A stretch of DNA of 64,000 nucleotides from a virus, in IMG/VR virus record IMGVR_UViG_3300020180_000013, positions 32,196 through 96,195 of that record; one strand, written 5' to 3'. Every line of letters starts with the position of its first letter. Within the stretch, counting starts at the first letter, position 1. Under the pieces are notes generated by a model. The model searched no databases, was not told the origin of the DNA, and was given only the letters and a program-made list of their open reading frames with translations. Of the stretch, positions 3,001-63,957 are shown one piece after another. The position numbers were made by a program, and so were the translations under genes.

Positions 3001-6000
3001 GTGAACTCATCTGCAGAAGCAGAAGCTATACCAGTACCTTCTTCATTGTCTATAGTAAGTTGAACACCTGATAAATTCTCTAGGTTTAATTTAGCATCTT
3101 TTCTTTTAGGTCTTCCTGGAGAATTCATATCAAATAAAGAAGTTATCCATATAGAAGATTTAGTATATGGATTTCTTTCAGTATCTAAATGATTCATATG
3201 AGGAAGAGCTATGAGCTCATCAAATGACTTAACTGAATTAATAGTGTTGATCATTTGAGTAAGAGTTGAATTAAGACTATGCTCAAATTGAGCATTACCT
3301 TCAGCATTAGTTACTGAGAAATTAGAGTACTGGTCTGAGTATCTAGTCTCTAATTCCATTAGTCTTTTCCAATTACCGGCCTCTCCTCTAAGTTCTTGAA
3401 TATTGCCCATAGCTGGCTGCTGTAGTTTAAATACATCAGATACTTTGGTTATAGTAAGTCCTCTACTTTGAATGTTAGCAAGAACTGCTCTTATAATATT
3501 AGCTTTACCTATATCATTAGCTATTCCTTGTTTAATCTCTTTCTTGTCAGATAACTGTACTCCTATTGCTTTAAAGAACTTGAATGCATTTTCTTTAATA
3601 GTATTAGCTGGGAAGTCCTTCAAGATGGTTGGAATATCCAGGTAGTTTATATTATTAGTGTCTTTCTTTATATATGGATTAGCATATGTAATTTGAAATA
3701 AATTATCCCATGCCTGGCCGGCTTTTTTGTAATCAGTAGAGGACTGGCCTATTTTTGAAATATAAGTAGAAGTCCCATCTTCATTTGTGACTTTATCAAG
3801 AGTCATCTGAATTAAAGGAATCCTGGTTTTGTTAAATGCATTCCAGAAGTCAGTCCACATTTTAAACTCAGGCCCAGATATAGTATCAGATGATCCTAGT
3901 TTAGATAATAGTTGTTTGAATACAGGAAAAGTCTCAGCTTCAGATTTGAGTCTTTTCTCCATCACTTCTGGAGAAGAGCTTCCTTCTAAAACTTTAGCTA
4001 ATCTATTCCATACTACATCAAACTCAGCTAATTGATTAACTCCTAGTTTATTCTTTTTAGTATTACCAGAGTTATCTATAGCATTAAGAGATCTAATTAA
4101 ATATAATACTTGGTTAGAAGCTAGATCAGTAAGAGAAGTTTCATTACCGTTCTTGTTATAACCTTCTCGTCCCTTAGATGCATCTTCATTTTCTTCTGGA
4201 GCTACATCTTCAAACTTATCTTCAAGAGATAAGTATTTTGATTTAAGATTATGATAGTTTATTAATCCTTTTCCATTTTCTACTCCTATTGGTTTTTCAG
4301 GATCTCCAAAGTTTCTAATAGCATAATCTAAAAGATTAATATTCTTCTGGATTTGTTCTTTAAGGAACTGATCAGTAGTTTGATCAAGACTAGATTGAAG
4401 ATCATTTCTTATATGAGCTAGCCTGGTTCTGGAGTATTTATAAGCTGTAGATCTATTATTACTACTAGTTACAATAGTAGAAGTAAATCTATTAGTTAAG
4501 TCTTTAGTATTTTTAAGATCTATTAGTTCTGAAAAAAGAGAATCTATAGTATCTACTAGTAGTCTAGAATCTTCATATGATAAAGACTGAAGAGGCTCTT
4601 CAGAAGAAATAGCTTCTAATCCTTTATTAAGGATATTAAAATTTATATTATCTCCGGAGAAAGTGAATTTATGAAGATCTCCTATTCTTAATTTTTCATA
4701 TAGATCATTTATAGTAGAAATAGCATTTTGATTTATAGCTAACTGAGCTACTGTACTATTTCCAAAAAGTGCTTTAAGAAAGTTTAATATCTTTCTAAAT
4801 AGAGTATTTCTTACTGGAGTAGTTAATTTCTTTCCATCAGATAACATATAGTTTCTGAAGTCTTCAGCTAAGTATTCTTCTAGCTCTATATTAGAAGCTG
4901 ATTTGAAAGAAATATTTTTTCCTTGATAAGTAGTAAATTTTCCGGACTTATTTCTTAGCTCATTATATACTTCTTGTTTTTGGTCTTTAGTTAAAAAGCC
5001 TTGAGTGAATGCATGCCATGCCTCATGATAAAGATCACTATAGTCTGCTCCTTTGTATAAAGTGATTCCATTTACTGTCCAGGTAGCTACTGCATTAGGA
5101 TTGGCAGCATTAATCATATTAAACATTACTTCAAAAGGGAAGTGTTTAGATAATGGAGAAGAGTTATACCAAGATCTGGCCTCAGTTATTTGTTCTTCTG
5201 TGGCTTTTTTATTGATCTCTTTTTGACCGGTAGTTTTCTCAAGAGTAGCTAATAAATCATCTATATCTTTCTGTCTTTGATCTGCAACTGATGATTCTAC
5301 TATTTTAGCTGGAGTAACTTCTGGTTTTACTTCTATAGTCTCTTTAGGATTAAGTTTTTCTATTTCACTATCAAGAGGAGAATAATTAAAGTATCCATTA
5401 AGAGTTACTATTTTTCCTTGTTCATTTATAGGAATATTAATTACTGTATGCTCTCCTAAAAAGTCTTTATAGTTTTTATCTGTTGGAATAAGCCGGGTAT
5501 TTTCCCCTTCTATAGAAAGAGTAAAGTCCTGGAAGTCTTCCATCCTGGATAAGAATTTTCTATTAATATTTATCTGAGCCCCTACCCATTTAGTATAGAT
5601 GTCTTTACCATTAGTATCTACTGTCTTTACTATAGCTCCTTGATATAATTCTTTCTCCCACTCAGGTTGAGTTCCGTCAATGATCTTTCCTGTAGGTCTG
5701 GTGACTATTTCACTAGGAGATATTCTAGTTAAGTAATCTATTATAGTTTTATTAGCAAGATCTTTATCAGATAGATCCAATGGCACTCCTTTTATAGTTA
5801 TCTCAAGATTCTGTCCATCTTCAGATACCTGAATATTCATTCCTTTGTCAGTTGTCTGAATATAGTTTTTAGCATAGTTTAATTTCTCATATGGAGAAAG
5901 TGATACATCTTCTCCAGAAGGAGCTTTTGCTGTAATATCATTTACTAATAATGATGATACTTTAGTAGCTAGTTCTGCAGTAAACTGTCTTCTCTGTAAA

Positions 6001-19423: not shown

Positions 19424-20071
19424 TTATAAAGATATACTATTTAGTCTCAATTTTCTTCTAGTTTCTATTTGTTTTTCTATAGATTCTCTAGTTCTAGGAA
19501 TTCCTTTTAACTTATAATTGGATATTCCAGTCTTAGTTTTTATAATTTTTTCTATAGTTTCCTGAGAGTGACTTCTTCCTCTAAGTTTATCTCCTATTTT
19601 TTTTCTAGATTCTATAGATCTGGGAGTAGATGGACTCTTCCTTTTTATTCCCTCTAATTTTCTTCTTTTAACAGCTTCAGCTTTTCTTTTTAAGGTTTCT
19701 TCCGATGGTTTATATCCTTTTTTAAATCCTCCTTTATTTTTAACTACATGGTTTCCTCTCCAGATACCTGATTTAAGTTGCATATTATATTCTGGATATA
19801 AATTATCTAAATAATATTGTTCTCTAAAATATATTTCTTCTTTTTTACATAATTCTATAATAGAAAATTCAAAATTATCAGCTCCATATTTTTCATATGA
19901 ATATTGTAAATGTTTATTATGATGTTTTTTTAAATTTAGCTTAGATAGATGTTGATTATATCTAGTTCTAAATGATATAGCACTTCCAATATAAAATTTT
20001 CCATTGATAATATTAGTTATTTTATATATTCCTGTACTATTAAAATTTATATAATCTCCTTGATAAATCAT
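19424..20071 (-). CDS. GIY-YIG homing endonuclease with NUMOD3-like repeats
   Basis: 215 residues. The GIY-YIG catalytic domain is clear: GIY at 14-16, YIG at 27-29, R35 in SFRTRYNQH, catalytic Glu at about 84 (FREQYYL). The C-terminal half carries repeated basic helices (SEETLKRKAEAVK, SIESRKKIGDKLRGR, TRESIEKQIETRR) typical of NUMOD3 DNA-binding motifs in free-standing Seg-type enzymes. Its ATG overlaps the TGA of the giant tail gene and its TAA lies 2 bases before the next ATG, so it is seamlessly inserted. It is expected to cut a neighbouring tail-gene allele lacking it and spread by repair. Confidence 0.9.
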   Translation of the reverse strand: MIYQGDYINFNSTGIYKITNIINGKFYIGSAISFRTRYNQHLSKLNLKKHHNKHLQYSYEKYGADNFEFSIIELCKKEEIYFREQYYLDNLYPEYNMQLKSGIWRGNHVVKNKGGFKKGYKPSEETLKRKAEAVKRRKLEGIKRKSPSTPRSIESRKKIGDKLRGRSHSQETIEKIIKTKTGISNYKLKGIPRTRESIEKQIETRRKLRLNSISL

Positions 20072-34932: not shown

Positions 34933-35523
34933 CTATAAATTTCCAATACAGGCTCTGGATATATTTGATCTAGCTATTTTTAATGTATCTGCTGCTTCTT
35001 TTATACAATTCCATTCTTTTATTAATAGATTATCTTTTGTATATTGATAAATCTTTTTCATTTGTTTCTTCCCTGGATTGATATCTGATAACATTCTTTG
35101 TCTATTAGATTCATCTACTCCATTTAGTTTGTTTATATTAGCAACTCTTCTAGCTATAGAGGACTCTTTCATAGGATTTCTATCTGATTTCATCCTTTCT
35201 ATAATTGCTTTATTATTTTGTCTTCCTGTTCCTCCATCTCCACCAATAGTTCCGTTAGTTAATTTACAGAAACTTTTATAATGTTTTATTAATTCTATTT
35301 CACAAAAATTTAGATTTGATTCAGAACCTGTATATAATATTTTAAAACTAGGTTTTATATTATTAATTTTCAATAATCTTATCCATTTCTGTTTATGAGT
35401 ACCTAGATATTTTTCTGTTAAATGTTTACTTAATCTAGACTTAGGAAATAAAGTTTTTCCAATGTATCTAATTTGATCATTTCTAGGATCAACTAATGCA
35501 TATATATGTCCTTGTCTTTCCAT
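34933..35523 (-). CDS. GIY-YIG homing endonuclease with C-terminal NUMOD1-like end
   Basis: 196 residues from ATG 35523; a GTG 7 codons upstream would overlap the previous gene and is less likely. GHIY at 5-8 and YIG at 20-22 form the GIY-YIG core, with CEIELIKHY carrying the catalytic Glu. The C-terminus (YTKDNLLIKEWNCIKEAADT, ISRACIGNL) is the start of a NUMOD1 helix-turn-helix and stops at TAG earlier than usual, so the DNA-binding end may be shortened. The start is one base after the stop of the 185-residue gene, as for a precise insertion. Confidence 0.85.
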   Translation of the reverse strand: MERQGHIYALVDPRNDQIRYIGKTLFPKSRLSKHLTEKYLGTHKQKWIRLLKINNIKPSFKILYTGSESNLNFCEIELIKHYKSFCKLTNGTIGGDGGTGRQNNKAIIERMKSDRNPMKESSIARRVANINKLNGVDESNRQRMLSDINPGKKQMKKIYQYTKDNLLIKEWNCIKEAADTLKIARSNISRACIGNL

Positions 35524-35524
35524 A

Positions 35525-36082
35525 TTAACAATTTCCACACCCACATAAACAACTTAATTTATTTAGTCTCTTTAATGCATATAAATAAATATCCATTCCA
35601 TGTTTTGGTGAATGACAGTATTCTACTTTTGCTTTTGCTGCATCAAATAATGTTCTTATGAACTGAAGTTCTCTAATGAACTTATCTATCTCTGCAGTAG
35701 GATCACAACCTCTTATATCAAGACAACATAATACATTACTGTATTTTTTTAGTGCTGATGTTATTCTTAAATGATTATATTCTACAAAGACTATATCATT
35801 GGGAGAAACACTATATCTTGCAATATATACTCCATCTGGTAGGGTATTGAATGTAGTAGTGCAATTAGTTGTTTGAATACCTAAAGCACATGCTGTGATA
35901 TTCTCTATAAATCCGGGTTCTATATCTGGTACTATAGAAGCTTCCCAAAATCCTGGACTTGTTATTTCTAACTTAGGACACTCAAGAGGAATAGTAGGAT
36001 CATAAACTGAAGTATCTATAACTCTTATAATGCAAGAGTTCAGTACATCAGGTATTTCTAGACTTAGGACATGTTTTGCCAT
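35525..36082 (-). CDS. Conserved crAss-like head/tail connector-region protein
   Basis: 185 residues. The N-terminal half is beta-rich (VLSLEIPDVLNSCIIRVIDT, PDGVYIARYSVSP) and the C-terminal half helical (AEIDKFIRELQFIRTLFDAA) ending in CLCGCGNC, a candidate metal-binding tail. This beta-then-helix layout with a Cys tail recurs in crAss-like genomes near the head protein genes. It follows a strong terminator, so it starts a new transcript together with the fibre genes. The exact function is not known to me. Confidence 0.6.
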   Translation of the reverse strand: MAKHVLSLEIPDVLNSCIIRVIDTSVYDPTIPLECPKLEITSPGFWEASIVPDIEPGFIENITACALGIQTTNCTTTFNTLPDGVYIARYSVSPNDIVFVEYNHLRITSALKKYSNVLCCLDIRGCDPTAEIDKFIRELQFIRTLFDAAKAKVEYCHSPKHGMDIYLYALKRLNKLSCLCGCGNC

Positions 36083-40065: not shown

Positions 40066-40554
40066 TTATTTAGTTTTAATATTATTTATAGATAAATACT
40101 TTATTAAATTTAGTAAAATTGTAGTATCATCATTAACTAGTCCTAACATGATGTTACACTTACTACATAATAAGCCTCTAACTTCTCCAGTTTTATGATC
40201 ATGATCTACTGCTAATGCTTTACTTAATTCTGATTGATGTATTTTACATATTAAACACTGACCATATTGATTAATAAATAATTTATTATAATCATCTAAA
40301 GATATATTATATTTCTTTTTATAGATACTATTTCTATAACTATTTTTATATCTTTCTTTATCATAAGAAGATCTTATTTTATCTCTCTTCCTGTTATATT
40401 TATCTACTATATGAGGATTCTTATTTCTATATTTTTTTACTCTTTTTTTAATTTCAACTTTATTTTTTAAATAATGAATATGATTTCTTTCTTTAATCCT
40501 ATTTTTATTCTTCTGATACCATTCTTTTGAATATTCTGATCTATCTTTACTCAT
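40066..40554 (-). CDS. Endonuclease VII-like HNH homing endonuclease
   Basis: 162 residues. A very basic N-terminal arm (Arg/Lys/Tyr-rich, about 1-80) precedes the endonuclease VII-type zinc/HNH core: C100xxC103, DHDH at 117-120, C130xxC133, with KTGEVRGLLCSKCN between. The arm presumably binds DNA. A close relative lies at 45127-45552 on the other side of the capsid genes. It sits between two structural genes, with its stop 2 bases before the next start, as expected for a free-standing mobile endonuclease rather than a resolvase. Confidence 0.88.
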   Translation of the reverse strand: MSKDRSEYSKEWYQKNKNRIKERNHIHYLKNKVEIKKRVKKYRNKNPHIVDKYNRKRDKIRSSYDKERYKNSYRNSIYKKKYNISLDDYNKLFINQYGQCLICKIHQSELSKALAVDHDHKTGEVRGLLCSKCNIMLGLVNDDTTILLNLIKYLSINNIKTK

Positions 40555-45126: not shown

Positions 45127-45552
45127 TTAGTAGTTCTTTAAATAATTTATTGCATTTTCTAAGATCTGTATATTGTCTTTAGCTAATCCTATCATTACAT
45201 TACATTTAAAACATAATAATCCTCTAATTTTTCCTGTCTTGTGATCATGATCTATAGCTAGTGCTTTTTTAAATTCAACTTGATGTTTGTTACATATAGC
45301 ACATTCTCCATTTTGGAGTGTAAATAAATTATTATATTCTTCAATAGATAGATAGGGTTTATGTTTGTCTTTTAAAATACGTCTTTTAAATACTTGATTA
45401 TTCTTAAGTCCTTCTTGATATTTTCTTTGATATTCTTTCCTATCTCTTTTATGTGTTTTTGCGTATTTTCTATAATAATCCTTTCTATCTACTCTATTTT
45501 TATATTTTTTGTAATATTCTTTTTGATATTCTTTTCTATCTATCCTCTTCAT
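45127..45552 (-). CDS. Endonuclease VII-like HNH homing endonuclease
   Basis: 141 residues: a basic Arg/Lys/Tyr arm (1-66), then C84xxC87, DHDH at 101-104, C114xxC117 with KTGKIRGLLCFKCN between, matching the recombination endonuclease VII family and the paralogue at 40066-40554. It separates portal from scaffold. An 88-base gap upstream of it contains a TATATTTG box, which could give it a separate promoter. Intron-less HNH genes like this usually cut related phage DNA at the site they occupy. Confidence 0.88.
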   Translation of the reverse strand: MKRIDRKEYQKEYYKKYKNRVDRKDYYRKYAKTHKRDRKEYQRKYQEGLKNNQVFKRRILKDKHKPYLSIEEYNNLFTLQNGECAICNKHQVEFKKALAIDHDHKTGKIRGLLCFKCNVMIGLAKDNIQILENAINYLKNY

Positions 45553-48392: not shown

Positions 48393-49169
48393 TTATAATA
48401 ATTTAAAATTTGTATTATTAATACGTTTTCCTTTTAGTTTAAATAATAATGTATCATATCCTAAATAATAATCTTTAGAAGCTTCTTTTATAGACTTATA
48501 AATTTTTGTTGTAACTATATTTATAACCTTAGAATGTTTTCTGGATTTATTTTTAAGTTTATTAATATGTTCTTGTGATAATTTCTTTCCTGTTAATGCT
48601 TCTGATATTTTATTTCTAGTTAACTGACTTTTTTGTTTTCCAAAGTGTAGATGATTACTACCAGAATTTATTTTTGATAAATGTTTTTTCATTTCTTCAG
48701 AATTTCTTGGAATTCCTTTTTGAGATTCTGAAATCTTTTTTCTAGTTTCTTTAGATACTTTTCTTCCTGTATTTCCTAGTGCTATTTTATTACAATGTTC
48801 TTTAGAAAATTTCTTTCCATACCATGGATTATTATTTCCTGATTTAGATATAGATATTTTGTTTCTTACTTCTTCTGATGGATTTAGATACCCTTCACCA
48901 CCATCTGTAAGATTAGATAATACTCCAGTTTTATTATCTATCCTTCCATATAATTTAATAAATTCTATTTCTTTTTTACAGGCTTCTTCCCAGGATATAT
49001 TATCTAATACTATATCTACTCTAATTTCTGTTTTTATATAGATATCATTCCAGATTTTATTTCTTTTAGTAATTCTTTTAGATCTATAGTACTTATCAGA
49101 TTGAGAACCTATTCCTATATAAAAAGGCTCATTTTTATCCAATCTAATATGTCTATAAAGATAAGCCAT
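48393..49169 (-). CDS. GIY-YIG homing endonuclease with NUMOD3 and NUMOD1-like motifs
   Basis: 258 residues. LYRHI with FYIGIG (YIG 17-19) forms a GIY-YIG variant; KKEIEFIKLYG carries the catalytic Glu. Then come at least four NUMOD3-like repeats (SEEVRNKISISKSG, SKETRKKISESQKG, SEEMKKHLSKINSG, TRNKISEALTGKKL) and a NUMOD1-like C-terminus (TKIYKSIKEASKDYYLGYDT). It sits 5 bases after the terminase stop and 1 base before the portal start. It is a free-standing endonuclease that probably targets the terminase-portal junction of related phages. Confidence 0.9.
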   Translation of the reverse strand: MAYLYRHIRLDKNEPFYIGIGSQSDKYYRSKRITKRNKIWNDIYIKTEIRVDIVLDNISWEEACKKEIEFIKLYGRIDNKTGVLSNLTDGGEGYLNPSEEVRNKISISKSGNNNPWYGKKFSKEHCNKIALGNTGRKVSKETRKKISESQKGIPRNSEEMKKHLSKINSGSNHLHFGKQKSQLTRNKISEALTGKKLSQEHINKLKNKSRKHSKVINIVTTKIYKSIKEASKDYYLGYDTLLFKLKGKRINNTNFKLL

Positions 49170-49174
49170 TTTAA

Positions 49175-52100
49175 TTATCTAAGATTTTTAAATGGGTTTC
49201 TTGACGGTCTTGAATCTGAATTTTTGTTAGTAGAGCCCATATTATGAAACAGTCCCTTATTTAATTTATACAAATTTTTGGACTTATCCAAATTTTTAGT
49301 AGAGTCTTCATCTACTCTTCTTCTTATTCCTCTATTAGCTTTTTGAATAGCCACGAATGCTACTAGAGCTGAGAAGGCAATTAATCTATCCACGTTTAGT
49401 CCTGGTTGATAAGCTGCCATCTCTGCTAATAACATTGGATCCGGGATTCTCTCTACTCCATAAGTGGTTTTTACTATAGTTCCATCGGGCTTAGTTTCAG
49501 TATCTAATGACTCAGTTAAATATTCAATAGCATAAGATAATAGATTAGTTTTAAAGAGAGTTCCTGTATTCTTCCAACCATATTCCTGGTATACATTCTG
49601 ATTAGCTCCTAGATCTTTTAGAAAGAGTATCTGATCTTTTGGTACTAAATATTTCTGTTTTCTCTGAGCTATCATGTGTTGAATGAATAGACTCACATTA
49701 TTCTCAACTATAGTCCATGCATTATACCACTCTATAATTAATTCTAGTCTTTCATGAGTTTTTGATATATCATTAAATCTACCACACCAGGAAGCTACTA
49801 TTCCATCTCTCTCTATAAAGGTCTCCATTTTACCAGCTCTATCTGCTTTGGTAACTTGAACTGCATTCTTATAAATATAGATGGTACATAATGATTCTGA
49901 AGTAGTAGTTTTTCCTTCAGAGACTGGATCTATTGAGGCATAGTATAGTCCAAATTCTGCATCTTTAATAGGTCTCTCATAACATACAAGAACTCCTTCT
50001 TTATCTTCTCTTTTTGGACTTATAGGAAATTCACTAATAGGTAGTTTACCGGTATCTTTTACTGCTACTTTTCCCTCTTCATTTCTATGAATGTCCAGAA
50101 ACTCATATGGATATAACTTCTCTTCTATTCGTCTAATTTGGTTTTGTACATGTACTTGAGGAAATATAGATATTTTTCTATAAGCAAATGCCTCTTGGAT
50201 ATTCCGGGGATGTTGAGAAATCCTAAGTTGGTATTTTTCTGGAGATAGATCTCTCTTCCAAATCAATCTTAGTTCATCTATTGCTTTATTAGCTTCTTCA
50301 ACTAGGGAGTTACCAAACTCATCTATGTAAGGAGGCATAGACCATTGCTCCGGAATAAATAATCCAGCTAGATCTGTAGTTCCTTTCTCATCTATAAGAT
50401 TTGTTGTTACTGCATAGATATCATTTCCTGAAGGATATAATATCATCTTTTTTAATGGCTCACATTGCTCCAGATCACCTACTGATCCTGCTATAATAAA
50501 TAATCCTGTAGTTAATAAACCAGATTTCATAGCAGGTAATAAGTACTCAATTGTTGTATCTGCTGTTGGGGCTATACCACCTTCTTCATAGAAGAAATAT
50601 CTGCAATTATGAGTAATAGTTCCGTCTTTTAAGATAAATAAATTATCCTCACATTCAAAACCGTAATAATTATCTACTTTATACTTAGTAACTTTTAAAC
50701 TACTAAATCTATTTTTTGATTTTATTCCCGATTTAGTGGCTTTTTTTCTTAATATTTTAGTAGGTATATGAGTAATATCTCCAGTTATATTTAACCTATA
50801 ACATGATGTTTTATATTTATATACTGTAGAAGTTTTTCCAGTAGAGTTTACAATATGTATATGTGCATCTAATCCAAGATGTATGCATAATTTTTGAATA
50901 TCATATGCAAGTTTTTTACTTTTTATACTTAGTTCAAATCTATGTTTTTTATTATTAAGATAACCATCCGTATCTAATATTCCTGCTAATAATTCAAATC
51001 TTTGTTGTTTAGATGCTGTAAAATAAGATTCTGGTATATGTTTATTATTTAAACCTAATTCTTCAAATCTATGATGATATGCGGGTAACATAGTTTTTAT
51101 TTTATAACCAGAACTTAGTTTCATATCCCACATTTGATCATTGTAATCCTTTCTATAAAGATTTCTATTTCTTTCTTCTACTAAATAACCTTCTTTTTTT
51201 GCTAATTCGTATATATAATTAGATATTTCAATATCCTTTGTTTTATTTACTAAAATTCTATAATCATATTTACAACCATCGCCTAAGTATAATCCTAAAT
51301 AATAAGGATCTATTAAAAGATTTTTGTATTTATTTTCTATACCGTTATATTTAACGCCCTTTAATACTGTTTTTTTCTTCCATTGAGATAACGATATAAA
51401 ATCTTTGGTTTTAATTATGATATTTGATTTTTTTTCTATATCCCATAAATATAATTTATGATCCCCAGTAGTAACATATGTATCTCCCTTTGATTGACTT
51501 ACTTTATACATAAGATCTTTTCCACTGTATAATTTTGTTACTTTTTTAGGTTTACCGTCTATTCCTATTATATAATCATTTAAAATTATATCTTGTACTT
51601 TTTTGAGAGTTCCGTCATGCATCACTATTAATGTATCTTTTAAAACACAAGGGCCTCCTACTCCATTAGTGGGATCTTTATCAAATGTTAATCCTTGTAT
51701 AGTTCCTTTATTACCCTGACTGGTCTTTCTATTATTTATAACTACTTCTATTTGCTGCTGCCACATGAGAACCTTTCCCGGGTTCATTGGTCTATACCAT
51801 GCAGTATGCTTATCTAAGAAATTCCTATATTCAGTAAGAAATTTCCAGGTTCCTTTCTCATTAATAAAATCTTTGTGAGAAGCTCCCATTTTCATAGTAA
51901 CTCCTTCTTCAAACCATATCTGATTTATCAGTTTAGCACAATGAAAGTAGCTACTGGCTATCTGCCGTTTCTTAAGAATAGCTGCATGTAGATTATGTAA
52001 TTCAGCTAAAAGTTCATAGAGGGCCATATGATACTGAGCATCTCTTACTTTAGCAAATCCAAAGTGTCCTTCTTCCTTATCAAAGATTGGAAGAAAATTT

Positions 52101-52411
52101 AACCACATATAATAATCCCGGGTTAGATACCAGGTCTTTCCATTATTTTTATAGATGGCCCCACACCTGTTTTTTGTCTTTTGATCATCCCAGTAAGTAA
52201 CATAATCCTTACTTCTTGAAGGAGCTATACAGTAAACTTTATCTTTATTAAAAATCCTGGCTTGCTCATTGAACTTGTGAGAAGTCTCATCAAACCCATA
52301 TTGACCAGGCTCCTTAAAAATAGAGAGTATAAAATCTCTAAACTCTTCTCTAGTCTTAAAACTAGTAGTAGTCCACTGGTTTTCATAGGTAGGTATCTCT
52401 ATGTAACTCAT
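49175..52411 (-). CDS. terL: Terminase large subunit with intein
   Basis: 1,078 residues, of which 255-602 are an intein; the spliced protein has about 730. The ATPase domain has a Walker-A-like KKRQIASSY at 147-155 and Walker B FFYEE (606-610) just after the intein; AGSVGD at about 641-646 fits the coupling motif. The nuclease domain starts YYASIDPVSEG (about 823-833), D828 being the first RuvC-type metal ligand. The enzyme drives DNA packaging through the portal and cuts the concatemer. It follows the 172-residue gene by 2 bases and precedes the GIY-YIG insertion. Without splicing the Walker B region would be separated from Walker A, so packaging depends on intein excision. Confidence 0.93.
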   Translation of the reverse strand: MSYIEIPTYENQWTTTSFKTREEFRDFILSIFKEPGQYGFDETSHKFNEQARIFNKDKVYCIAPSRSKDYVTYWDDQKTKNRCGAIYKNNGKTWYLTRDYYMWLNFLPIFDKEEGHFGFAKVRDAQYHMALYELLAELHNLHAAILKKRQIASSYFHCAKLINQIWFEEGVTMKMGASHKDFINEKGTWKFLTEYRNFLDKHTAWYRPMNPGKVLMWQQQIEVVINNRKTSQGNKGTIQGLTFDKDPTNGVGGPCVLKDTLIVMHDGTLKKVQDIILNDYIIGIDGKPKKVTKLYSGKDLMYKVSQSKGDTYVTTGDHKLYLWDIEKKSNIIIKTKDFISLSQWKKKTVLKGVKYNGIENKYKNLLIDPYYLGLYLGDGCKYDYRILVNKTKDIEISNYIYELAKKEGYLVEERNRNLYRKDYNDQMWDMKLSSGYKIKTMLPAYHHRFEELGLNNKHIPESYFTASKQQRFELLAGILDTDGYLNNKKHRFELSIKSKKLAYDIQKLCIHLGLDAHIHIVNSTGKTSTVYKYKTSCYRLNITGDITHIPTKILRKKATKSGIKSKNRFSSLKVTKYKVDNYYGFECEDNLFILKDGTITHNCRYFFYEEGGIAPTADTTIEYLLPAMKSGLLTTGLFIIAGSVGDLEQCEPLKKMILYPSGNDIYAVTTNLIDEKGTTDLAGLFIPEQWSMPPYIDEFGNSLVEEANKAIDELRLIWKRDLSPEKYQLRISQHPRNIQEAFAYRKISIFPQVHVQNQIRRIEEKLYPYEFLDIHRNEEGKVAVKDTGKLPISEFPISPKREDKEGVLVCYERPIKDAEFGLYYASIDPVSEGKTTTSESLCTIYIYKNAVQVTKADRAGKMETFIERDGIVASWCGRFNDISKTHERLELIIEWYNAWTIVENNVSLFIQHMIAQRKQKYLVPKDQILFLKDLGANQNVYQEYGWKNTGTLFKTNLLSYAIEYLTESLDTETKPDGTIVKTTYGVERIPDPMLLAEMAAYQPGLNVDRLIAFSALVAFVAIQKANRGIRRRVDEDSTKNLDKSKNLYKLNKGLFHNMGSTNKNSDSRPSRNPFKNLR
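50606..51649 (-). mobile_element. LAGLIDADG intein inserted just before Walker B of terminase
   Basis: 348 residues. It starts with Cys255 (CVLKDTLIVMHDG, splicing block A), has TTGDH at 314-318 (block B TxxH) and ends ITHN before extein Cys603 (blocks F/G: YYGFECEDNLFILKDGTITH then N). Two LAGLIDADG helices, LGLYLGDG at 372-379 and LAGILDTDG at 475-483, mark a dodecapeptide homing endonuclease with both catalytic acids present, so it looks active. The joined extein reads GVGGP-CRYFFYEEGG. Base composition is more AT-rich than the surrounding gene, as expected for a newcomer. Confidence 0.95.
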
Positions 52412-52932: not shown

Positions 52933-53303
52933 AAATCTCTAAGTCTAGTTAACACATCTGCAGAAGTATGACCATCGAATTCTGGGGCTTTATCCAGGGT
53001 CTCAGCAAACTTACATTTATCCCATAGTTCTATAGGTAAATGATATGTAATTTGTTTACCTGGCTCTTTACCAAGTCCTAGTACAAACCATCCTTTCCAG
53101 ATAGTATTGTCTGAGTGTTTGATAGTTCTCCATGCATCATGATCTGTTCCTTCAAGACATCTGCAAAGTGCTATAAATAATACTATTCTATGATCATATA
53201 ATTCTTTGAATGTATGATAAGTATCACTGATATTATCTTTATTAATATCTAGATTACTTATTAAACTATTTATAGATTTAATAATTTCTTTTTCTTTTTC
53301 CAT
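52926..53303 (-). CDS. Small conserved crAss-like protein
   Basis: 125 residues. A helical start (EKEIIKSINSLISNLDINKD, TYHTFKELYDHRIVLFIALC) leads into HDAWRTIKHSDNTIWKGWFV and LGLGKEPGKQITYHLPIELW, a conserved-looking block similar to phage proteins of unknown role that precede packaging genes. No catalytic residues can be assigned. The start overlaps the end of the inserted HNH gene by 26 bases and the TAG overlaps the next ATG. Confidence 0.55.
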   Translation of the reverse strand: MEKEKEIIKSINSLISNLDINKDNISDTYHTFKELYDHRIVLFIALCRCLEGTDHDAWRTIKHSDNTIWKGWFVLGLGKEPGKQITYHLPIELWDKCKFAETLDKAPEFDGHTSADVLTRLRDLC

Positions 53304-53760
53304 AGATTAGATTTTGAAGTTGAGGTTTATTTAGACCTAGCCTATAAGCATGTTGGTTATTTTCATAATAGGTACACCACTCTAAATTATTAATATGATT
53401 GTTATTTTTATTTCCATCTAAATGATTAATACACGGTTTATTTTCAGGATTTGGAATAAAGGTTTGAGCAACTAGTCTATGTACTAGAAATGTATTATCT
53501 CTACCTAAATTTACTCTATGATATGATTTCTTATTATTTAGATTAAGTTTACTACACATAATAATATCTCTTCTTCTATTTATAAGTTTATTTTTACTAT
53601 CGGGTCTTCCTACTTTTTTTGATAATGATTTTATTCTTCCAAAAGTACTTGCTTGATATCTACCTTCATATTCTGGTATATCTCTCCATACTTCAATATC
53701 CGAAATAAGATTGGTATCAGAATCCTTTATAAGGATATTTAGAGCATCTTCTTTTTTCAT
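53278..53760 (-). CDS. NUMOD4-HNH homing endonuclease
   Basis: 160 residues. NUMOD4 at about 22-45 (EVWRDIPEYEGRYQASTFGR) binds DNA; the HNH core follows with H94R, INHLDGNKNNN at 111-121 and NLEWCT at 125-130. The ATG overlaps the TGA of the PD-(D/E)XK gene (ATGA) and the C-terminus runs 26 bases into the next gene. All key residues are present, so it is probably active. The enzyme is a free-standing homing endonuclease rather than a host-restriction enzyme. Confidence 0.9.
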   Translation of the reverse strand: MKKEDALNILIKDSDTNLISDIEVWRDIPEYEGRYQASTFGRIKSLSKKVGRPDSKNKLINRRRDIIMCSKLNLNNKKSYHRVNLGRDNTFLVHRLVAQTFIPNPENKPCINHLDGNKNNNHINNLEWCTYYENNQHAYRLGLNKPQLQNLIYGKRKRNY

Positions 53761-54593
53761 TTCTTAACTTTTATTAAATGTCTGTTGTCTCTAAGATAGT
53801 TAATCATAGCTATTACTTCACTTTTATAATAAGGGACTGGATAATGCTTTAGATCTTTAATCACATAATTACCAGATGAATCTTTTTTGTATATAGGATA
53901 ATTATATTTATCTCTGGCTTCTTCTTCAAAGATTACATGGTCTATAACTAGCTTTCCTGGAATGAACTGAGGATTATGCTTTAGAATCATGTATAAATAT
54001 AAACTAAGTTGTAGTCCATAGTGCACTATATGACAATCATCTAGGTGATCTAAAGGATATAACATTTTAGTAGTACGTCCCTCCCAATTAGTAAAGCCTT
54101 CTAGCTTAATTTCTTTACTGGTTTTATAATCTGAAATAGAAACAAGTCTGTTAACTACCTCTACTCTATCTGACTGTCCACAAATTCCAGCTGATTTTAA
54201 ATATACCAAATGCTCAGGATATATTCCATTCTGAAGTTTCTGATCTGGAGCATATTTTATTCCCTCAATTATAATAGGCTTTACAATAGGAACTGTAACT
54301 CCATGTCTTTCCATAGTCTCAAATTCCATAATATCACTCTCTCTTTGATTATGATACCATGTACCTAATGTAGTAGATCTGTCTCCTTCACCCTTCCAGA
54401 TAGATTGTATTTCTTCTGGAGAAATTCCATACCATTTAGATCTAACATTATTAGATGATCTGGTAGCTTGTTTTACCGGATCAAAAGACTGTTTAAAATG
54501 AGAAACAAATGTAGTCACTCCTAACCAGTCTATTTTCTCACTAGGATCAATACTTTGATATTGATGAAACTCTGGTTTAAAGATGAGTGCCAT
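53757..54593 (-). CDS. RecB-like PD-(D/E)XK nuclease
   Basis: 278 residues. Motifs in order: GTWYHNQRE at 77-85 (GxxxH), EHLVY with E127, GQSDRV with D142, SDYKTSK with D155 and K157, and QLSLYLY at 195-201 (Q-xxx-Y). This is the RecB-exonuclease fold used by phage nucleases in recombination and DNA-end processing. Crassvirales carry such enzymes. It follows the 102-residue Cys-rich gene directly with overlapping start and stop. Substrate is inferred: phage or host DNA ends. Confidence 0.8.
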   Translation of the reverse strand: MALIFKPEFHQYQSIDPSEKIDWLGVTTFVSHFKQSFDPVKQATRSSNNVRSKWYGISPEEIQSIWKGEGDRSTTLGTWYHNQRESDIMEFETMERHGVTVPIVKPIIIEGIKYAPDQKLQNGIYPEHLVYLKSAGICGQSDRVEVVNRLVSISDYKTSKEIKLEGFTNWEGRTTKMLYPLDHLDDCHIVHYGLQLSLYLYMILKHNPQFIPGKLVIDHVIFEEEARDKYNYPIYKKDSSGNYVIKDLKHYPVPYYKSEVIAMINYLRDNRHLIKVKK

Positions 54594-54901
54594 TAGTTAG
54601 TATTTAGATGATCATTAAGTGTATCCTCTTCTTCCTGAGTAAGAACAGCTTCCCATCTTTTATCATCACAGGATGCAGATAGAGCTCTTTGTTTAAAGTG
54701 TAAACAACATCCACATAATTTACAACATGGTTGAGTTCCCGGGATTGTACAGGAGGATCCTTCAGTATCTATATTAGGACATGCCTCACATATTCTCTTT
54801 CTCTCATTGGCTATCTCTTCCACATGATCTGAAGTAAATATAGAGTTTGTGATTCCTTCAAGAATCTTGCCCTTGTTTTTCCATATTCTGATTAGACTCA
54901 T
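54593..54901 (-). CDS. Cys-rich (Zn or Fe-S) small protein
   Basis: 102 residues. Eight or more cysteines lie in about 45 residues: CEACPNIDTEGSSC, CCKLCGCCLHF and SCDDKRW, which could bind two zinc ions or an iron-sulfur cluster. The N-terminus is a helical charged segment and the end acidic. Its ATG is embedded in the last codons of the HU/IHF-like gene, overlapping by 44 bases. A DNA-binding or redox helper for the neighbouring nuclease is possible; I recognise only the general crAss-like character. Confidence 0.6.
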   Translation of the reverse strand: MSLIRIWKNKGKILEGITNSIFTSDHVEEIANERKRICEACPNIDTEGSSCTIPGTQPCCKLCGCCLHFKQRALSASCDDKRWEAVLTQEEEDTLNDHLNTN

Positions 54902-55262
54902 CCTGATGTTTCTTTAGTTTAAACTGCTGTTTTCTATTGGCTTCTTCTTGATAGAAGTCTGTTAGTTTTTGCAGTCTTCTTATTAGTTCTTCTAACTGTT
55001 CTTGTTTTTCAGCACTGGTAAATGTCAGAGGAGTTTTACCGGCCAATATTCCTGAATAAGTTTTAAGACGTTTTTTAAGCATCTTTTTTCTTACTTTAAA
55101 TGATCCTAGATTTGGCATTAATACTGTGGGCTCATTTAATTCAACCAACATTTTCCTAAGATTCTTCCAATAAAACTTAAGAATATGCTCTACTAATATA
55201 GGATCTAATTCTAGATCTTTAGCAGTTTGCTTAGATATATCTTCAGCCTTCCTGGGATTCAA
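54858..55262 (-). CDS. HU/IHF-like DNA-bending protein
   Basis: 134 residues from a TTG at 55262, the first codon after an in-frame stop; no ATG is available until residue 39. Helices 1-2 (ISKQTAKDLELDPILVEHIL, KFYWKNLRKML) and the strand signature LMPNLGSFKVRKK fit HU/IHF, for which crAss-like phages are known to encode a divergent member. The C-terminal 50 residues (QEQLEELIRRLQKLTDFYQE, then Lys/Gln-rich) extend beyond the usual family length. The overlap of 20 bases with the upstream gene and 44 with the next implies tight coupling. A role in DNA compaction or packaging is likely. Confidence 0.65.
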   Translation of the reverse strand: MNPRKAEDISKQTAKDLELDPILVEHILKFYWKNLRKMLVELNEPTVLMPNLGSFKVRKKMLKKRLKTYSGILAGKTPLTFTSAEKQEQLEELIRRLQKLTDFYQEEANRKQQFKLKKHQDESNQNMEKQGQDS

Positions 55263-55611
55263 CTCTTAAGATTTTATAGTCTAATAAAATATTACCAATA
55301 GTTTGAATATTCTGAATATTTAGAGATATCTTTTTCTTATTCTTCCCCTTTTTAATTATAAGTTGTTTTTCCTCTGCTTTGTTGATTATATTTCTCACTG
55401 ACTGCAAACTAGTTGCTATATGAGTGTCAACTGCCGATTTACAGAAATCTCCTAAGATTGTTTCTCCGGTTAATGCCAGGAGAGTTAAACAATTCAGATC
55501 AAGATCAGAAATGATAATCTTATTGATATGACAGTGAATATTCAATTGAAACTTCACTATATCCCATTGATCCATTCTGATCTTTTTCTGTACCTGATTT
55601 ACAATAGCCAT
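55243..55611 (-). CDS. Winged-helix-like putative regulator
   Basis: 122 residues. The segment DLNCLTLLALTGETILGDFC, KSAVDTHIATSLQSVRNIIN, KAEEKQLIIKKGKNKKKISL has the order helix, helix, recognition helix, wing (KKGKNKKK) of winged-helix DNA-binding proteins such as phage replication or transcription regulators. It heads the IHF-like/nuclease operon; its leader holds AAACCAAC directly before ATG. The region upstream (55612-55817) contains only the DUF2829 remnant. Regulator is an inference from the fold pattern. Confidence 0.6.
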   Translation of the reverse strand: MAIVNQVQKKIRMDQWDIVKFQLNIHCHINKIIISDLDLNCLTLLALTGETILGDFCKSAVDTHIATSLQSVRNIINKAEEKQLIIKKGKNKKKISLNIQNIQTIGNILLDYKILRVESQEG

Positions 55612-55636
55612 GTTGGTTTATGGTTTTACTAAAATA

Positions 55637-55768
55637 TTACTCTACTACAGTCCAATCTTCAGCTAATACATCTGTTTGAGATGCTAGCCAAGGAACTTGT
55701 TTTTTATCTGCCGTAAACATATAAATATATGGAAGACTCATTTTACTATTTGCATCTGGAGTTTGTAT
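55637..55768 (-). pseudogene. Remnant of DUF2829/Tad2-type anti-Thoeris gene
   Basis: The 206-base gap 55612-55817 contains, in one frame ending at TAA 55637-55639, the residues IQTPDANSKMSLPYIYM and FTADKKQVPWLASQTDVLAE then DWTVVE. This is the highly characteristic C-terminal half of DUF2829 proteins, the family of the anti-Thoeris protein Tad2. The frame is closed by a TAG at 55769-55771, and an ATG 55805 opens another frame (MDTETNIRNIRLD) that would join it by a +1 shift. The conserved N-terminal half is missing. A 34-residue ORF starts at 55741. I call it a decayed gene; function is lost or unproven. Confidence 0.6.
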
Positions 55769-55817
55769 CTAATCTAATATTTCTAATGTTAGTTTCTGTA
55801 TCCATAATTATTTGGTT

Positions 55818-56120
55818 TTAGTGGGTTGCTACTTCTGGTTGAGCTTCTTGTTTAACTGAATCTGATTGTGATGCTTTTGTCTCAGCTTTATTTTTAGCCT
55901 CTTCCTCTTGAGAGGGAGCTAACATTTGTCCCATTAATACCTGGGCTCTGATTCTTCTAGTTCTTAACTCGTCTATTTCTGTGATAAGTGTTTCATACTT
56001 TTTTTGTTCTTCAAGAAAGGGTTGTTGGTCTTTAAAGAACTGTAGCATCTGTGCTTTTCTTTGTGCTATCTGTTCTGGGGTAAGAACTTCTTCTGCTTGT
56101 TCTGGACTTTGGTTTTCCAT
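55818..56120 (-). CDS. Acidic coiled-coil small protein
   Basis: 100 residues. Glu/Gln-rich ends flank a predicted helix (IAQRKAQMLQFFKDQQPFLE, YETLITEIDELRTRRIRAQV). Similar small acidic helices occur in crAss-like genomes close to regulatory and head genes. The start lies just below the promoter-like region (56121-56220), with leader AACTAAAAACTATAATAA, so it heads this transcript. No enzyme motif. A structural or assembly-chaperone role is possible. Confidence 0.55.
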   Translation of the reverse strand: MENQSPEQAEEVLTPEQIAQRKAQMLQFFKDQQPFLEEQKKYETLITEIDELRTRRIRAQVLMGQMLAPSQEEEAKNKAETKASQSDSVKQEAQPEVATH

Positions 56121-56140
56121 TTATTATAGTTTTTAGTTCG

Positions 56141-56181
56141 AAGTTTAAATCTTGGATAAATATACTAATTTAAGTTTAAAC
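56141..56181 (-). promoter_or_regulatory. Candidate phage promoter with paired GTTTAAAC-type repeats
   Basis: Between the terminator at 56233-56251 and the start at 56120, the minus strand reads GTTTAAACTTAAA (56169-56181), then AAATTAGTATATT (56159-56171, overlapping), then a second TTTAAACTT (56141-56149). The first 13-mer recurs in the 15103-15195 gap, the second in the 62925-62996 gap. The position directly after a terminator makes a transcription start likely. Confidence 0.5.
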
Positions 56182-56232
56182 TAAAAGTGTATATTTTATT
56201 AAAAATACTAAAAGGCTTATATTAATGAAAAA

Positions 56233-56251
56233 AGCCACTTTTTAGGTGGCT
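56233..56251 (-). terminator. Rho-independent terminator after the lysis cassette
   Basis: On the minus strand AGCCAC/GTGGCT form a 6-bp stem with a 7-base loop followed by TTTTTTCATT. It lies 26 bases after the stop of the 141-residue spanin candidate and ends the transcript from the right. Confidence 0.85.
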
Positions 56252-56276
56252 AATATTAATAAAATGTTGATAACTC

Positions 56277-56702
56277 TTACTTTATAATGACTAATACTCC
56301 AAGAAGTGCTGATAAAATAGCAAAGGATACTTTGTACTTTTTCTGTTTTGAAGCATATTTTTGAGTGAGGTTTAAATCTTGTTTAAGAGTAGCTAATAAC
56401 ATATTAGCATTAAGGATCTGTGCATTGTTGTTATCTATAATAGATCTAAGAATATTATTCTGAGTAGTCTGTTTCTTTACAATACTATCTAATTGATGAA
56501 TGGTTTGTATATTAATTGGCTCAATAGAATCACAGTATATTTCATTAGAAATACTAGTGACAATATAATTATATTGATTAGGATAAAAACAACGAAAGTC
56601 AGTAGTGCCCTCTCTAATGATTGTCGGTTGTAATGTGGATGGTTGACATAAAGCTATCCTGTTTAGTAAGAGTAGCATTATTAAGAAGCTTAAACCTTTC
56701 AT
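56277..56702 (-). CDS. Unimolecular-spanin-like lysis protein
   Basis: 141 residues. A hydrophobic signal-like N-terminus ends at Cys19 (MKGLSFLIMLLLLNRIALC); the -3 to -1 residues (IAL) are only a poor lipobox. The middle is a long hydrophilic helix region (NNILRSIIDNNNAQILNANM) and the C-terminus a membrane segment (VSFAILSALLGVLVIIK). Signal/lipid anchor plus C-terminal membrane helix is the plan of u-spanins, which fuse the inner and outer membranes at lysis. The gene overlaps the preceding membrane gene by 89 bases, as Rz1 overlaps Rz. The spanin call is inferred from topology. Confidence 0.5.
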   Translation of the reverse strand: MKGLSFLIMLLLLNRIALCQPSTLQPTIIREGTTDFRCFYPNQYNYIVTSISNEIYCDSIEPINIQTIHQLDSIVKKQTTQNNILRSIIDNNNAQILNANMLLATLKQDLNLTQKYASKQKKYKVSFAILSALLGVLVIIK

Positions 56703-56982
56703 GTTTCTTATCTGTTAAGTAAACTGATTTGATCTCATTCTGAGCTGCTCTCTTCTTTATACTATCAGTACTGAGAGAATCTTTATAGTGGGCTTGTAAT
56801 AATATTATATTAATAGAAGCCAGGGAATCCTGTGACTTCTGAAATCTTTTATAGAGCTCAGTGTTATCTACTGGTTTGGTAGGATTATTGAACCGGTTTA
56901 CAATTATAGGAATAAAAAAAGCAGCAAGAAGTGCAAATATTAGCAATGCTATAAGTGTACCAATTACTGCTTTTATATTCAT
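56614..56982 (-). CDS. Membrane-anchored periplasmic helical protein (spanin/holin partner)
   Basis: 122 residues. One N-terminal membrane helix (AVIGTLIALLIFALLAAFFI) is followed by a charged, mostly helical domain (NTELYKRFQKSQDSLASINI, DSIKKRAAQNEIKSVYLTDK), an Rz-like i-spanin layout. The last 89 bases overlap the next gene, which begins at its C-terminus. It ends in TAG. A role in the lysis cassette is inferred from neighbours (amidase two genes upstream). Confidence 0.5.
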   Translation of the reverse strand: MNIKAVIGTLIALLIFALLAAFFIPIIVNRFNNPTKPVDNTELYKRFQKSQDSLASINIILLQAHYKDSLSTDSIKKRAAQNEIKSVYLTDKKHERFKLLNNATLTKQDSFMSTIHITTDNH

Positions 56983-56985
56983 AAA

Positions 56986-57192
56986 TTATTTCTTAGTTGT
57001 ATCAACTTTAGTAGTGTCTACAGTAACTGGAACTGTGGGTACTAATGTATCTATAATTGGAGCTACTATAGTACTATCAGTAGTTGGTGCTGAATCAGCA
57101 CTATACATAAAATTATAGCTTGCTATCAATCCTGCAGAGATTCCTGCTATTACTAAAATTATTACTAATGATTTTTTTGAAAAGAGTTTCAT
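56986..57192 (-). CDS. Small membrane protein with Thr/Val/Pro tail
   Basis: 68 residues. A single N-terminal membrane helix (SLVIILVIAGISAGLIAS) preceded by Lys, followed by a Thr/Val/Pro-rich tail (TLVPTVPVTVDTTKVDTTKK). Topology suggests a signal-anchor with the tail in the periplasm. It belongs to the run of small membrane genes after the amidase; a holin, antiholin or spanin subunit is possible, no family recognised. Confidence 0.45.
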   Translation of the reverse strand: MKLFSKKSLVIILVIAGISAGLIASYNFMYSADSAPTTDSTIVAPIIDTLVPTVPVTVDTTKVDTTKK

Positions 57193-62996: not shown

Positions 62997-63347
62997 TTAT
63001 TTAATAGTACCTCTTAATACTTCAAGAAGTTGGGACATGATGTGAGTGTGTAAATATGCCTCAGCCTCATGCTCTTTATCCCGGTCTAAAATAGCCGGTA
63101 GAATGTACTGGCACATATGAGTGGTAGTATTTTCCAGTTCTCTATGTAGAGCTATATAATTAGAATTAGTTAACCTGATCTTATCACCTGATATTCCGGC
63201 TAACCAATCACTAGCTTGTTTCTTCTTCAGAAGTCTGATGACTTCATCATAACTAAACTGGTAAGAGAATAGAATAGTAGCCGGGAATATTCCTGTATCA
63301 AGCCAATGAAGGATCTTAATAGACTTAGTTGGTTTAGCCTTTTTCAT
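62997..63347 (-). CDS. Small conserved phage protein, unknown
   Basis: 116 residues, basic N-terminus (KKAKPTKSIKILHWLDTG), then FPATILFSYQFSYDEVIRLL and KKKQASDWLAGISGDKIRLT, a mixed alpha/beta protein of conserved appearance in phages that I cannot name. The His-rich C-terminal half (ALHRELENTTTHMCQYILPA, LHTHIMSQLLEVL) could bind metal. The ATG overlaps the stop of the upstream GIY-YIG gene (ATGA). Confidence 0.55.
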   Translation of the reverse strand: MKKAKPTKSIKILHWLDTGIFPATILFSYQFSYDEVIRLLKKKQASDWLAGISGDKIRLTNSNYIALHRELENTTTHMCQYILPAILDRDKEHEAEAYLHTHIMSQLLEVLRGTIK

Positions 63348-63922
63348 ACTTTAGTTTTATTTAAATACTCCTTAAATTTATCATAACCTATATAATCAAA
63401 AGATGGATTAAAATCTTCTTTTCTTATAAATATCCATCCTTTTACAGATCGTTTTCCCTCGGGCTTTCCAATCCAATATCTAATAGCTTTATATACATAT
63501 CTTGAGGATATATTAATAGACTCTTTTATCTGTAAAATAGTTAGTTCTCTAATCTCCTTTGTATTGATGTTTATACATATTATATCTTTTAAAACTCTAG
63601 TTAAAGCAGTAGATCTATGTATTTTAAGATCATTAGGTAGAACACAGTTGTAGCCTTTTTCCGGATTCATAGAATTATAAAAATTAACCCAATAAGTTTC
63701 TCTAGTTAATAAGTCTTGTTTTAGACATAGTTCTTGAATAGAGAAATCAAAATTAGATTCAGTACACTTATTCCAATCTTTTTGAATTATATTATTACAA
63801 TGGAGTCCTCTTCTTAGGTTATATCTATGTCTTGACCAATGTTTATTAATGTTAATAGAAGATCCTACATATATCTTTTGACTTACTAAATTTCGTATTA
63901 AATATACTCCTGATCTTTTCAT
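63344..63922 (-). CDS. GIY-YIG homing endonuclease
   Basis: 192 residues from the ATG at 63922; a TTG ten codons upstream is a less likely start because it lies inside the promoter-like box. GVY at 5-7 and YVG at 18-20 form the catalytic core, with ETYWVNFYN carrying the Glu at about 83. The C-terminal half is a helical/basic DNA-binding region (LKIHRSTALTRVLKDIICIN, ISSRYVYKAIRYWIG) like NUMOD1. Its TGA overlaps the next ATG. It is a mobile endonuclease at the front of the operon. Confidence 0.88.
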   Translation of the reverse strand: MKRSGVYLIRNLVSQKIYVGSSININKHWSRHRYNLRRGLHCNNIIQKDWNKCTESNFDFSIQELCLKQDLLTRETYWVNFYNSMNPEKGYNCVLPNDLKIHRSTALTRVLKDIICININTKEIRELTILQIKESINISSRYVYKAIRYWIGKPEGKRSVKGWIFIRKEDFNPSFDYIGYDKFKEYLNKTKV

Positions 63923-63949
63923 AAAATTTTTTCTATAATTTTTACAAAA

Positions 63950-63957
63950 CAAATATA
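63950..63957 (-). promoter_or_regulatory. TATATTTG box, possible Bacteroidota-type promoter
   Basis: On the minus strand TATATTTG (TAnnTTTG) lies 27 bases upstream of the ATG at 63922, at a fitting distance for a minus-7 element with a short leader. A minus-33 TTTG is not evident. The 78 bases right of the first gene (63923-64000) contain no other supported feature. Confidence 0.35.

What the first reader, a model, noticed from the sequence alone, without database searches (positions are those of the whole stretch)
55637..55805. Decayed DUF2829/Tad2-family gene in the regulator gap
The string SKMSLPYIYM...VPWLASQTDVLAEDW is the hallmark C-terminal half of DUF2829, the family of the Tad2 protein that blocks Thoeris signalling. 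The N-terminal half is gone and the frame is interrupted by a stop. A phage that carried and then lost an anti-Thoeris gene hints at a change of host or defence pressure. Alternatively a short +1-shifted form (MDTETNIRNIRLD joined) may still be made.
Basis: partly seen in the sequence, partly recalled or inferred. Interest (0 to 1): 0.62.

Follow-up and report, generated by a model that had tools for sequence, protein, structure and literature searches.

The report
Remnant of a phage anti-defence gene
A virus that infects bacteria carries the broken tail end of a Tad2-like gene, a kind of gene other phages use to block bacterial immune signals; it looks like an ordinary dead leftover in a spot where its relatives carry assorted extra genes.

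Summary
On the minus strand, 55768-55637 encodes IQTPDANSKMSLPYIYMFTADKKQVPWLASQTDVLAEDWTVVE, which matches the last 33 of 73 positions of Pfam Tad2-like/DUF2829 (PF11195; E=2e-11, 44.6 bits, cut-off 25). The first half (helix 1, strand 1, GWNGK loop) is missing here and was not found elsewhere in the 96-kb record (control). A start codon with strong gene-start context survives at 55805, but its frame ends after 19 codons and is out of register. The 34-aa ORF's own ATG has no such context. The record is an environmental crAss-like-type phage. The flanking genes lie within 67 nt of each other in 69 of 77 rows examined. Where they do not, relatives carry unrelated accessory genes. One relative group carries an intact, divergent Tad2-fold gene upstream of the same winged-helix gene. 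Best reading: an accessory Tad2-like gene that lost an out-of-frame internal stretch and is now a pseudogene. The loss may be recent, since 21 of 21 conserved positions are kept. Which defence it countered, and any change of host, cannot be read from it. Interest is low.

The parts
55637..55768 (-). C-terminal remnant of a Tad2-like/DUF2829 gene: 43 codons IQTPDANSK...VVE plus stop
   Evidence: PF11195 positions 41-73/73, E=2.1e-11, 44.6 bits; 82.6 bits to a profile built from 45 intact homologues; translation
55637..55741 (-). Longest ATG-started ORF in the remnant, 34 aa; its ATG corresponds to the conserved internal Met of the family (SKM[ST]LPYI)
   Evidence: start context scores below all 44 reference gene starts; alignment
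55769..55771 (-). In-frame TAG directly upstream of the homologous part
55746..55805 (-). Surviving gene start: ATG with strong start context, now an orphan 19-aa ORF MDTETNIRNIRLDTNSRCK that is out of register with the remnant and ends 4 nt before the ATG of the 34-aa ORF
   Evidence: context rank 40 of 44 among reference starts, top 0.5% of all ATGs on the strand
55612..55817 (-). 206-base insert between two genes that lie within 67 bases of each other in most relatives
55818..56120 (-). Upstream flank: conserved small gene (100 aa, MENQSP...), no Pfam match above cut-off
55243..55611 (-). Downstream flank: conserved 122-aa gene (MAIVNQV...), predicted winged helix
   Evidence: no Pfam or PHROG match

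Best explanation
This is a pseudogene. A phage of the crAss-like type acquired a small Tad2-like (DUF2829) gene as accessory cargo between two conserved genes. One or more deletions then removed most of the N-terminal half and left the two ends out of register. Shown: the C-terminal half is intact in sequence, the N-terminal half is gone, the surviving start codon is out of frame, and the site is empty or variably filled in relatives. Inferred: that the start at 55805 belonged to the same gene, that the change was a deletion rather than acquisition of a ready-made fragment, and that no working product is made. What an intact gene would have done, by family knowledge, is soak up a nucleotide immune signal; the remnant lacks the helix and loop that build the tetramer and the signal pocket.
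For: Family match of the C-half only. N-half absent from the record (control). Start context strong at 55805 and absent at 55741. Codon use in the remnant's frame fits this phage (0.49 bits per codon against -1.41 and -1.26 in the other frames). 21 of 21 columns at least 90% conserved in 45 intact homologues are kept. The flanking genes are within 67 bases of each other in 69 of 77 rows, and other insert clusters hold other cargo. A close relative has a full-length Tad2-like gene upstream of the same flank gene, followed by the same genes through TerL. Tetramer and pocket need helix 1 and the beta1-beta2 loop (PMC12043709, passages seen); in the model of the relative's protein these are residues 20-28 and about 36-42, the part missing here.
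Against: The retained half shows no damage at all, which also fits selection on a short product. The 34-aa ORF starts 4 nt after the stop of the 19-aa ORF, a layout that allows stop-start coupling. No intact allele of this same gene was found, so the deletion itself is not seen directly, and the residual upstream 49 bases show no significant N-half similarity (40 of 500 shuffles score as high).
Confidence: 0.85

Rival explanations
1. A short C-terminal Tad2 peptide (34 aa) is still made by stop-start coupling from the 19-aa ORF and has some role of its own.
For: Stop TAG 55748-55746 lies 4 nt before ATG 55741; the upstream start has strong context; all 21 conserved C-half columns are kept.
Against: The internal ATG itself scores below all 44 reference starts. 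The piece lacks helix 1 and the GWNGK loop. No other relative with this short form was found: the only other records with a PF11195 match among those searched are the identical L002 and the intact L117 and contig-cut L119.
Confidence: 0.08
2. The recorded sequence is a minority or assembly-collapsed allele; the virus population still carries an intact gene.
For: Both records are metagenome assemblies; no reads could be examined.
Against: Two separately listed records are identical across 9,068 bases including the lesion.
Confidence: 0.04
3. Programmed +1 frameshifting joins MDTETNIRNIRLD to the C-half, giving a short fusion protein.
For: The offset between ATG 55805 and the remnant is one base.
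Against: The stretch in which a shift could occur has no shift signal that I recognise (recalled knowledge, not tested). The product would still lack the family's N-half.
Confidence: 0.02

Closest known systems
Tad2 / Tad2-like domain (PF11195, DUF2829), e.g. SPO1 Tad2 (PDB 8sme, 8smf) and Myroides odoratus ModTad2 (8v3e, 9eib)
   Same: C-terminal half PYIYM...VPWLASQTDxLAEDW matches
   Different: N-terminal half with helix 1, strand 1 and GWNGK loop is missing; no full-length reading frame
Intact DUF2829 gene in the IMG/VR record of L014 and in Acinetobacter phage VB_ApiP_XC38
   Same: 88% and 71% identity over the remnant
   Different: Both are full-length; XC38's gene is 74 aa
Divergent Tad2-fold gene of the related phage record behind L117 (87 aa)
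   Same: Upstream of the same winged-helix gene and the same downstream gene order; PF11195 1-73, 44.1 bits
   Different: Intact but sequence-divergent (GWPETQ for GWNGK, FWDPKQED for PWLASQTD), another gene lies between it and the flank gene, and the upstream flank gene was not found in the 1,111 bases available

Membership tests
Tad2-like (PF11195) | C-terminal half with PYI...WLASQTD..AEDW | tested here: met
   E=2.1e-11, 44.6 bits, profile 41-73
Tad2-like (PF11195) | N-terminal half (F.EAL..LK.G..VAR.GWNGKGM) in the same protein | tested here: not met
   absent in all three frames upstream and not found elsewhere in the record (control)
Tad2-like (PF11195) | Continuous reading frame of about 70 codons or more | tested here: not met
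   34-aa ORF only; TAG at 55771-55769
Tad2-like (PF11195) | Signal-binding pocket built with the beta1-beta2 loop, tetramer through helix 1 | tested here: not met
   segments missing by alignment; requirement as told in PMC12043709 passages
Tad2-like (PF11195) | Binding of gcADPR-type or cyclic dinucleotide signals | not testable with these tools
   needs protein

The most novel reading that the evidence does not exclude
The intact C-half is kept because a 34-aa half-Tad2 peptide is made by stop-start coupling and acts, for example by joining subunits of a co-infecting phage's Tad2.
Probability: 0.04. Interest if true: 0.5.

Novelty: new member of a known kind. Interest (0 to 1): 0.2.

Why it matters
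It documents that Tad2-like genes reach, and are lost from, an environmental crAss-like phage lineage, and it marks a site where accessory genes come and go. It opens no new mechanism. The intact divergent Tad2-fold gene in a relative (L117) is the more useful lead for anyone looking for counter-defence genes in these phages.

Tried and rejected
Chance match: rejected by E-values. Alternative code: TAG is used as a stop by 7 of 44 genes counted, TGA by 5 and TAA by 32, so reading TAG through is not favoured; the frame also has no ATG/GTG/TTG before the remnant. Split gene by intron or intein with the N-half elsewhere: nothing found. A remnant of helix 1 in the frame upstream (LTLEILD): 0.2 bits, 40 of 500 shuffles as good, not claimed. 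Known RNA in 54500-57000: none at Rfam gathering thresholds. A flanking repeat that would explain the deletion: one search gave one two-copy 16-nt family, far from the junction, and I attach no weight to it. RyR-domain replacement counter-defence in the record: no match, but the control search rang nowhere, so this shows nothing. Near-identical DNA in named phages: none; the flank protein also has no match in named phages. Literature: searches for Tad2 with crAss and crAss-like and DUF2829 listed no paper that I recognised as describing Tad2-like genes in crAss-like phages; this rests on listings only, and the library is partial. Selection test (dN/dS): impossible, since the only other copy is identical.

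Full report
What is there. The window is 64,000 bases of a 96,195-base virus record. Its capsid, portal and terminase proteins match phage head families. The capsid protein is most like Leptolyngbya phage Lbo-JY46 (27.6%), followed by human-gut records including uncultured phage cr124_1, and by Cellulophaga phages phi17:2 and phi4:1. I take this as the crAss-like type of phage; that label is recalled, not returned by a tool. On the minus strand, between the genes 55818-56120 and 55243-55611, lie 206 bases containing the reported string.

Family. The 42-residue stretch matches PF11195 Tad2-like over positions 41-73 of 73 at E=2.1e-11. PHROGs 1048 and 872 match at about the same strength. Solved Tad2 chains match by sequence. 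In named phages, tblastn at E up to 1 finds 274 records, the best by rank at 70.7% identity in Acinetobacter phage VB_ApiP_XC38, where the gene is a full 74 aa. In IMG/VR the best non-identical match is 88% (L014). In genome contigs 99 relatives passed and 80 were kept; the closest by E-value are from Alphaproteobacteria and Firmicutes with a few Bacteroidota further down, all at or below 78% identity, so no donor is evident.

What is missing. The family's first half holds helix 1, strand 1 and the GWNGK loop. None of it is found directly upstream in any frame, and only one PF11195 match exists in the record. An N-half query finds nothing in the record, while the same query rings in the two control records. 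An N-half profile run with filters off on the window gives nothing better than E=0.24. The frame of the remnant is closed by TAG at 55771-55769. An ATG at 55805 has an upstream context as good as real gene starts (rank 40 of 44; top 0.5% of ATGs on the strand), whereas the ATG at 55741 that opens the 34-aa ORF scores below all 44 (the 44 starts trained the score, so their own ranks are flattered). The ATG at 55805 is one base out of register with the remnant, and its own frame ends at 55746, four bases before 55741.

How old. In the C-half, 21 of 21 columns that are at least 90% conserved among 45 intact homologues are unchanged, and the piece scores higher than 37 of the 45. The homologues were mostly chosen for similarity to the piece, which flatters this. 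Codon use in the remnant's frame is normal for this phage. So the loss may be recent, or the half is under selection; with only one identical second record (L002, 9,068 bases at 100%) this cannot be decided.

The site. Of 83 rows in all (window, L002 and these 81), 77 also have a relative of the upstream gene and 6 do not; 4 of those 6 have at most 242 bases upstream. In 69 of the 77 the two genes are at most 67 bases apart; 8 rows, the window and L002 included, have an insert of 206 to 1,522 bases. Many loci are near-duplicates: at 90% identity of the downstream protein there are 29 clusters, of which 20 are empty, 7 have an insert and 2 are undetermined. Inserts include an amidase-like gene in L003 (by eye), a GNAT acetyltransferase in L121 and a Phage_gp49_66 protein in L144. 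The gp49_66 domain is fused in front of a Tad2-like domain in Pasteurella phage Pm86.

An intact relative. I searched 50 of the 81 relatives' whole records for PF11195; 2 of 50 match: L117 (full profile, no stop) and L119 (30.8 bits, cut by the contig end). L117's protein is 87 aa with PF11195 1-73 at 44.1 bits. Downstream it has the same gene order as the window through TerL. Its AlphaFold2 model (mean pLDDT 74.8, pTM 0.65) matches solved Tad2 structures: the first 23 Foldseek ranks are Tad2 or AcrIIA7 chains, and VIA-align gives Z 8.8-9.9 over 69-79 residues at 2.3-4.0 A, against 4.3 for the next unrelated entry. Between this gene and the flank gene lies one more small gene, and the upstream flank gene was not found in the 1,111 bases available. 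So it is the same neighbourhood, not proven to be the same insertion. It is too divergent from the remnant to be the same acquisition (my judgement from alignment).

Mechanism. By a review (PMC12043709, passages seen), Tad2 is a tetramer that interlocks along helix 1, and its gcADPR pockets use the beta1-beta2 loop of both contributing subunits. Both elements are in the missing part, so the remnant should not bind signal. I therefore read it as a pseudogene, at 0.85. The main rival is a short peptide made by stop-start coupling (0.08).

That the lost gene was anti-Thoeris cannot be told: chains with the same fold carry the names AcrIIA7 and 'Inhibitor of Type II CRISPR-Cas system', and some were solved with cGG. 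That loss shows a host change is not testable here; with most relatives empty at this site, turnover of cargo is the simpler view. The word 'regulator' for the downstream gene has some support: its model (mean pLDDT 81.3) resembles winged-helix DNA-binding domains (best Z 11.4, zinc uptake regulator 4mtd, 2.8 A over 88 residues). That is a common fold and shows no function.

Noticed in passing
L117 428-688 (IMG/VR 3300043449_000481): Intact, divergent Tad2-fold protein (GWPETQ in place of GWNGK) in a relative of this phage, upstream of the same winged-helix gene; its best structural matches include Tad2 of a Myroides phage.
   Followed up: partly
L144, about 540 to 300 bases upstream of the flank gene at 5001: Phage_gp49_66 (PF13876) protein in the same accessory site; this domain is fused to a Tad2-like domain in Pasteurella phage Pm86.
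   Followed up: partly
window 49175-52411: Terminase large subunit carries a stretch of roughly 330 residues that TerL of L003 lacks and that overlaps matches to other large families; looks like an intein.
   Followed up: no
L094 6488-7464: The PD-(D/E)XK nuclease gene is split in two pieces around a stretch resembling the TerL insert of the window, suggesting an intein-like insertion in the nuclease gene of a relative.
   Followed up: no
window 19424-20071, 34933-35544, 40066-40554, 45127-45552, 48393-49169, 53278-53760, 63344-63952: Many free-standing homing-endonuclease-like ORFs (GIY-YIG or HNH by eye) between structural genes.
   Followed up: no
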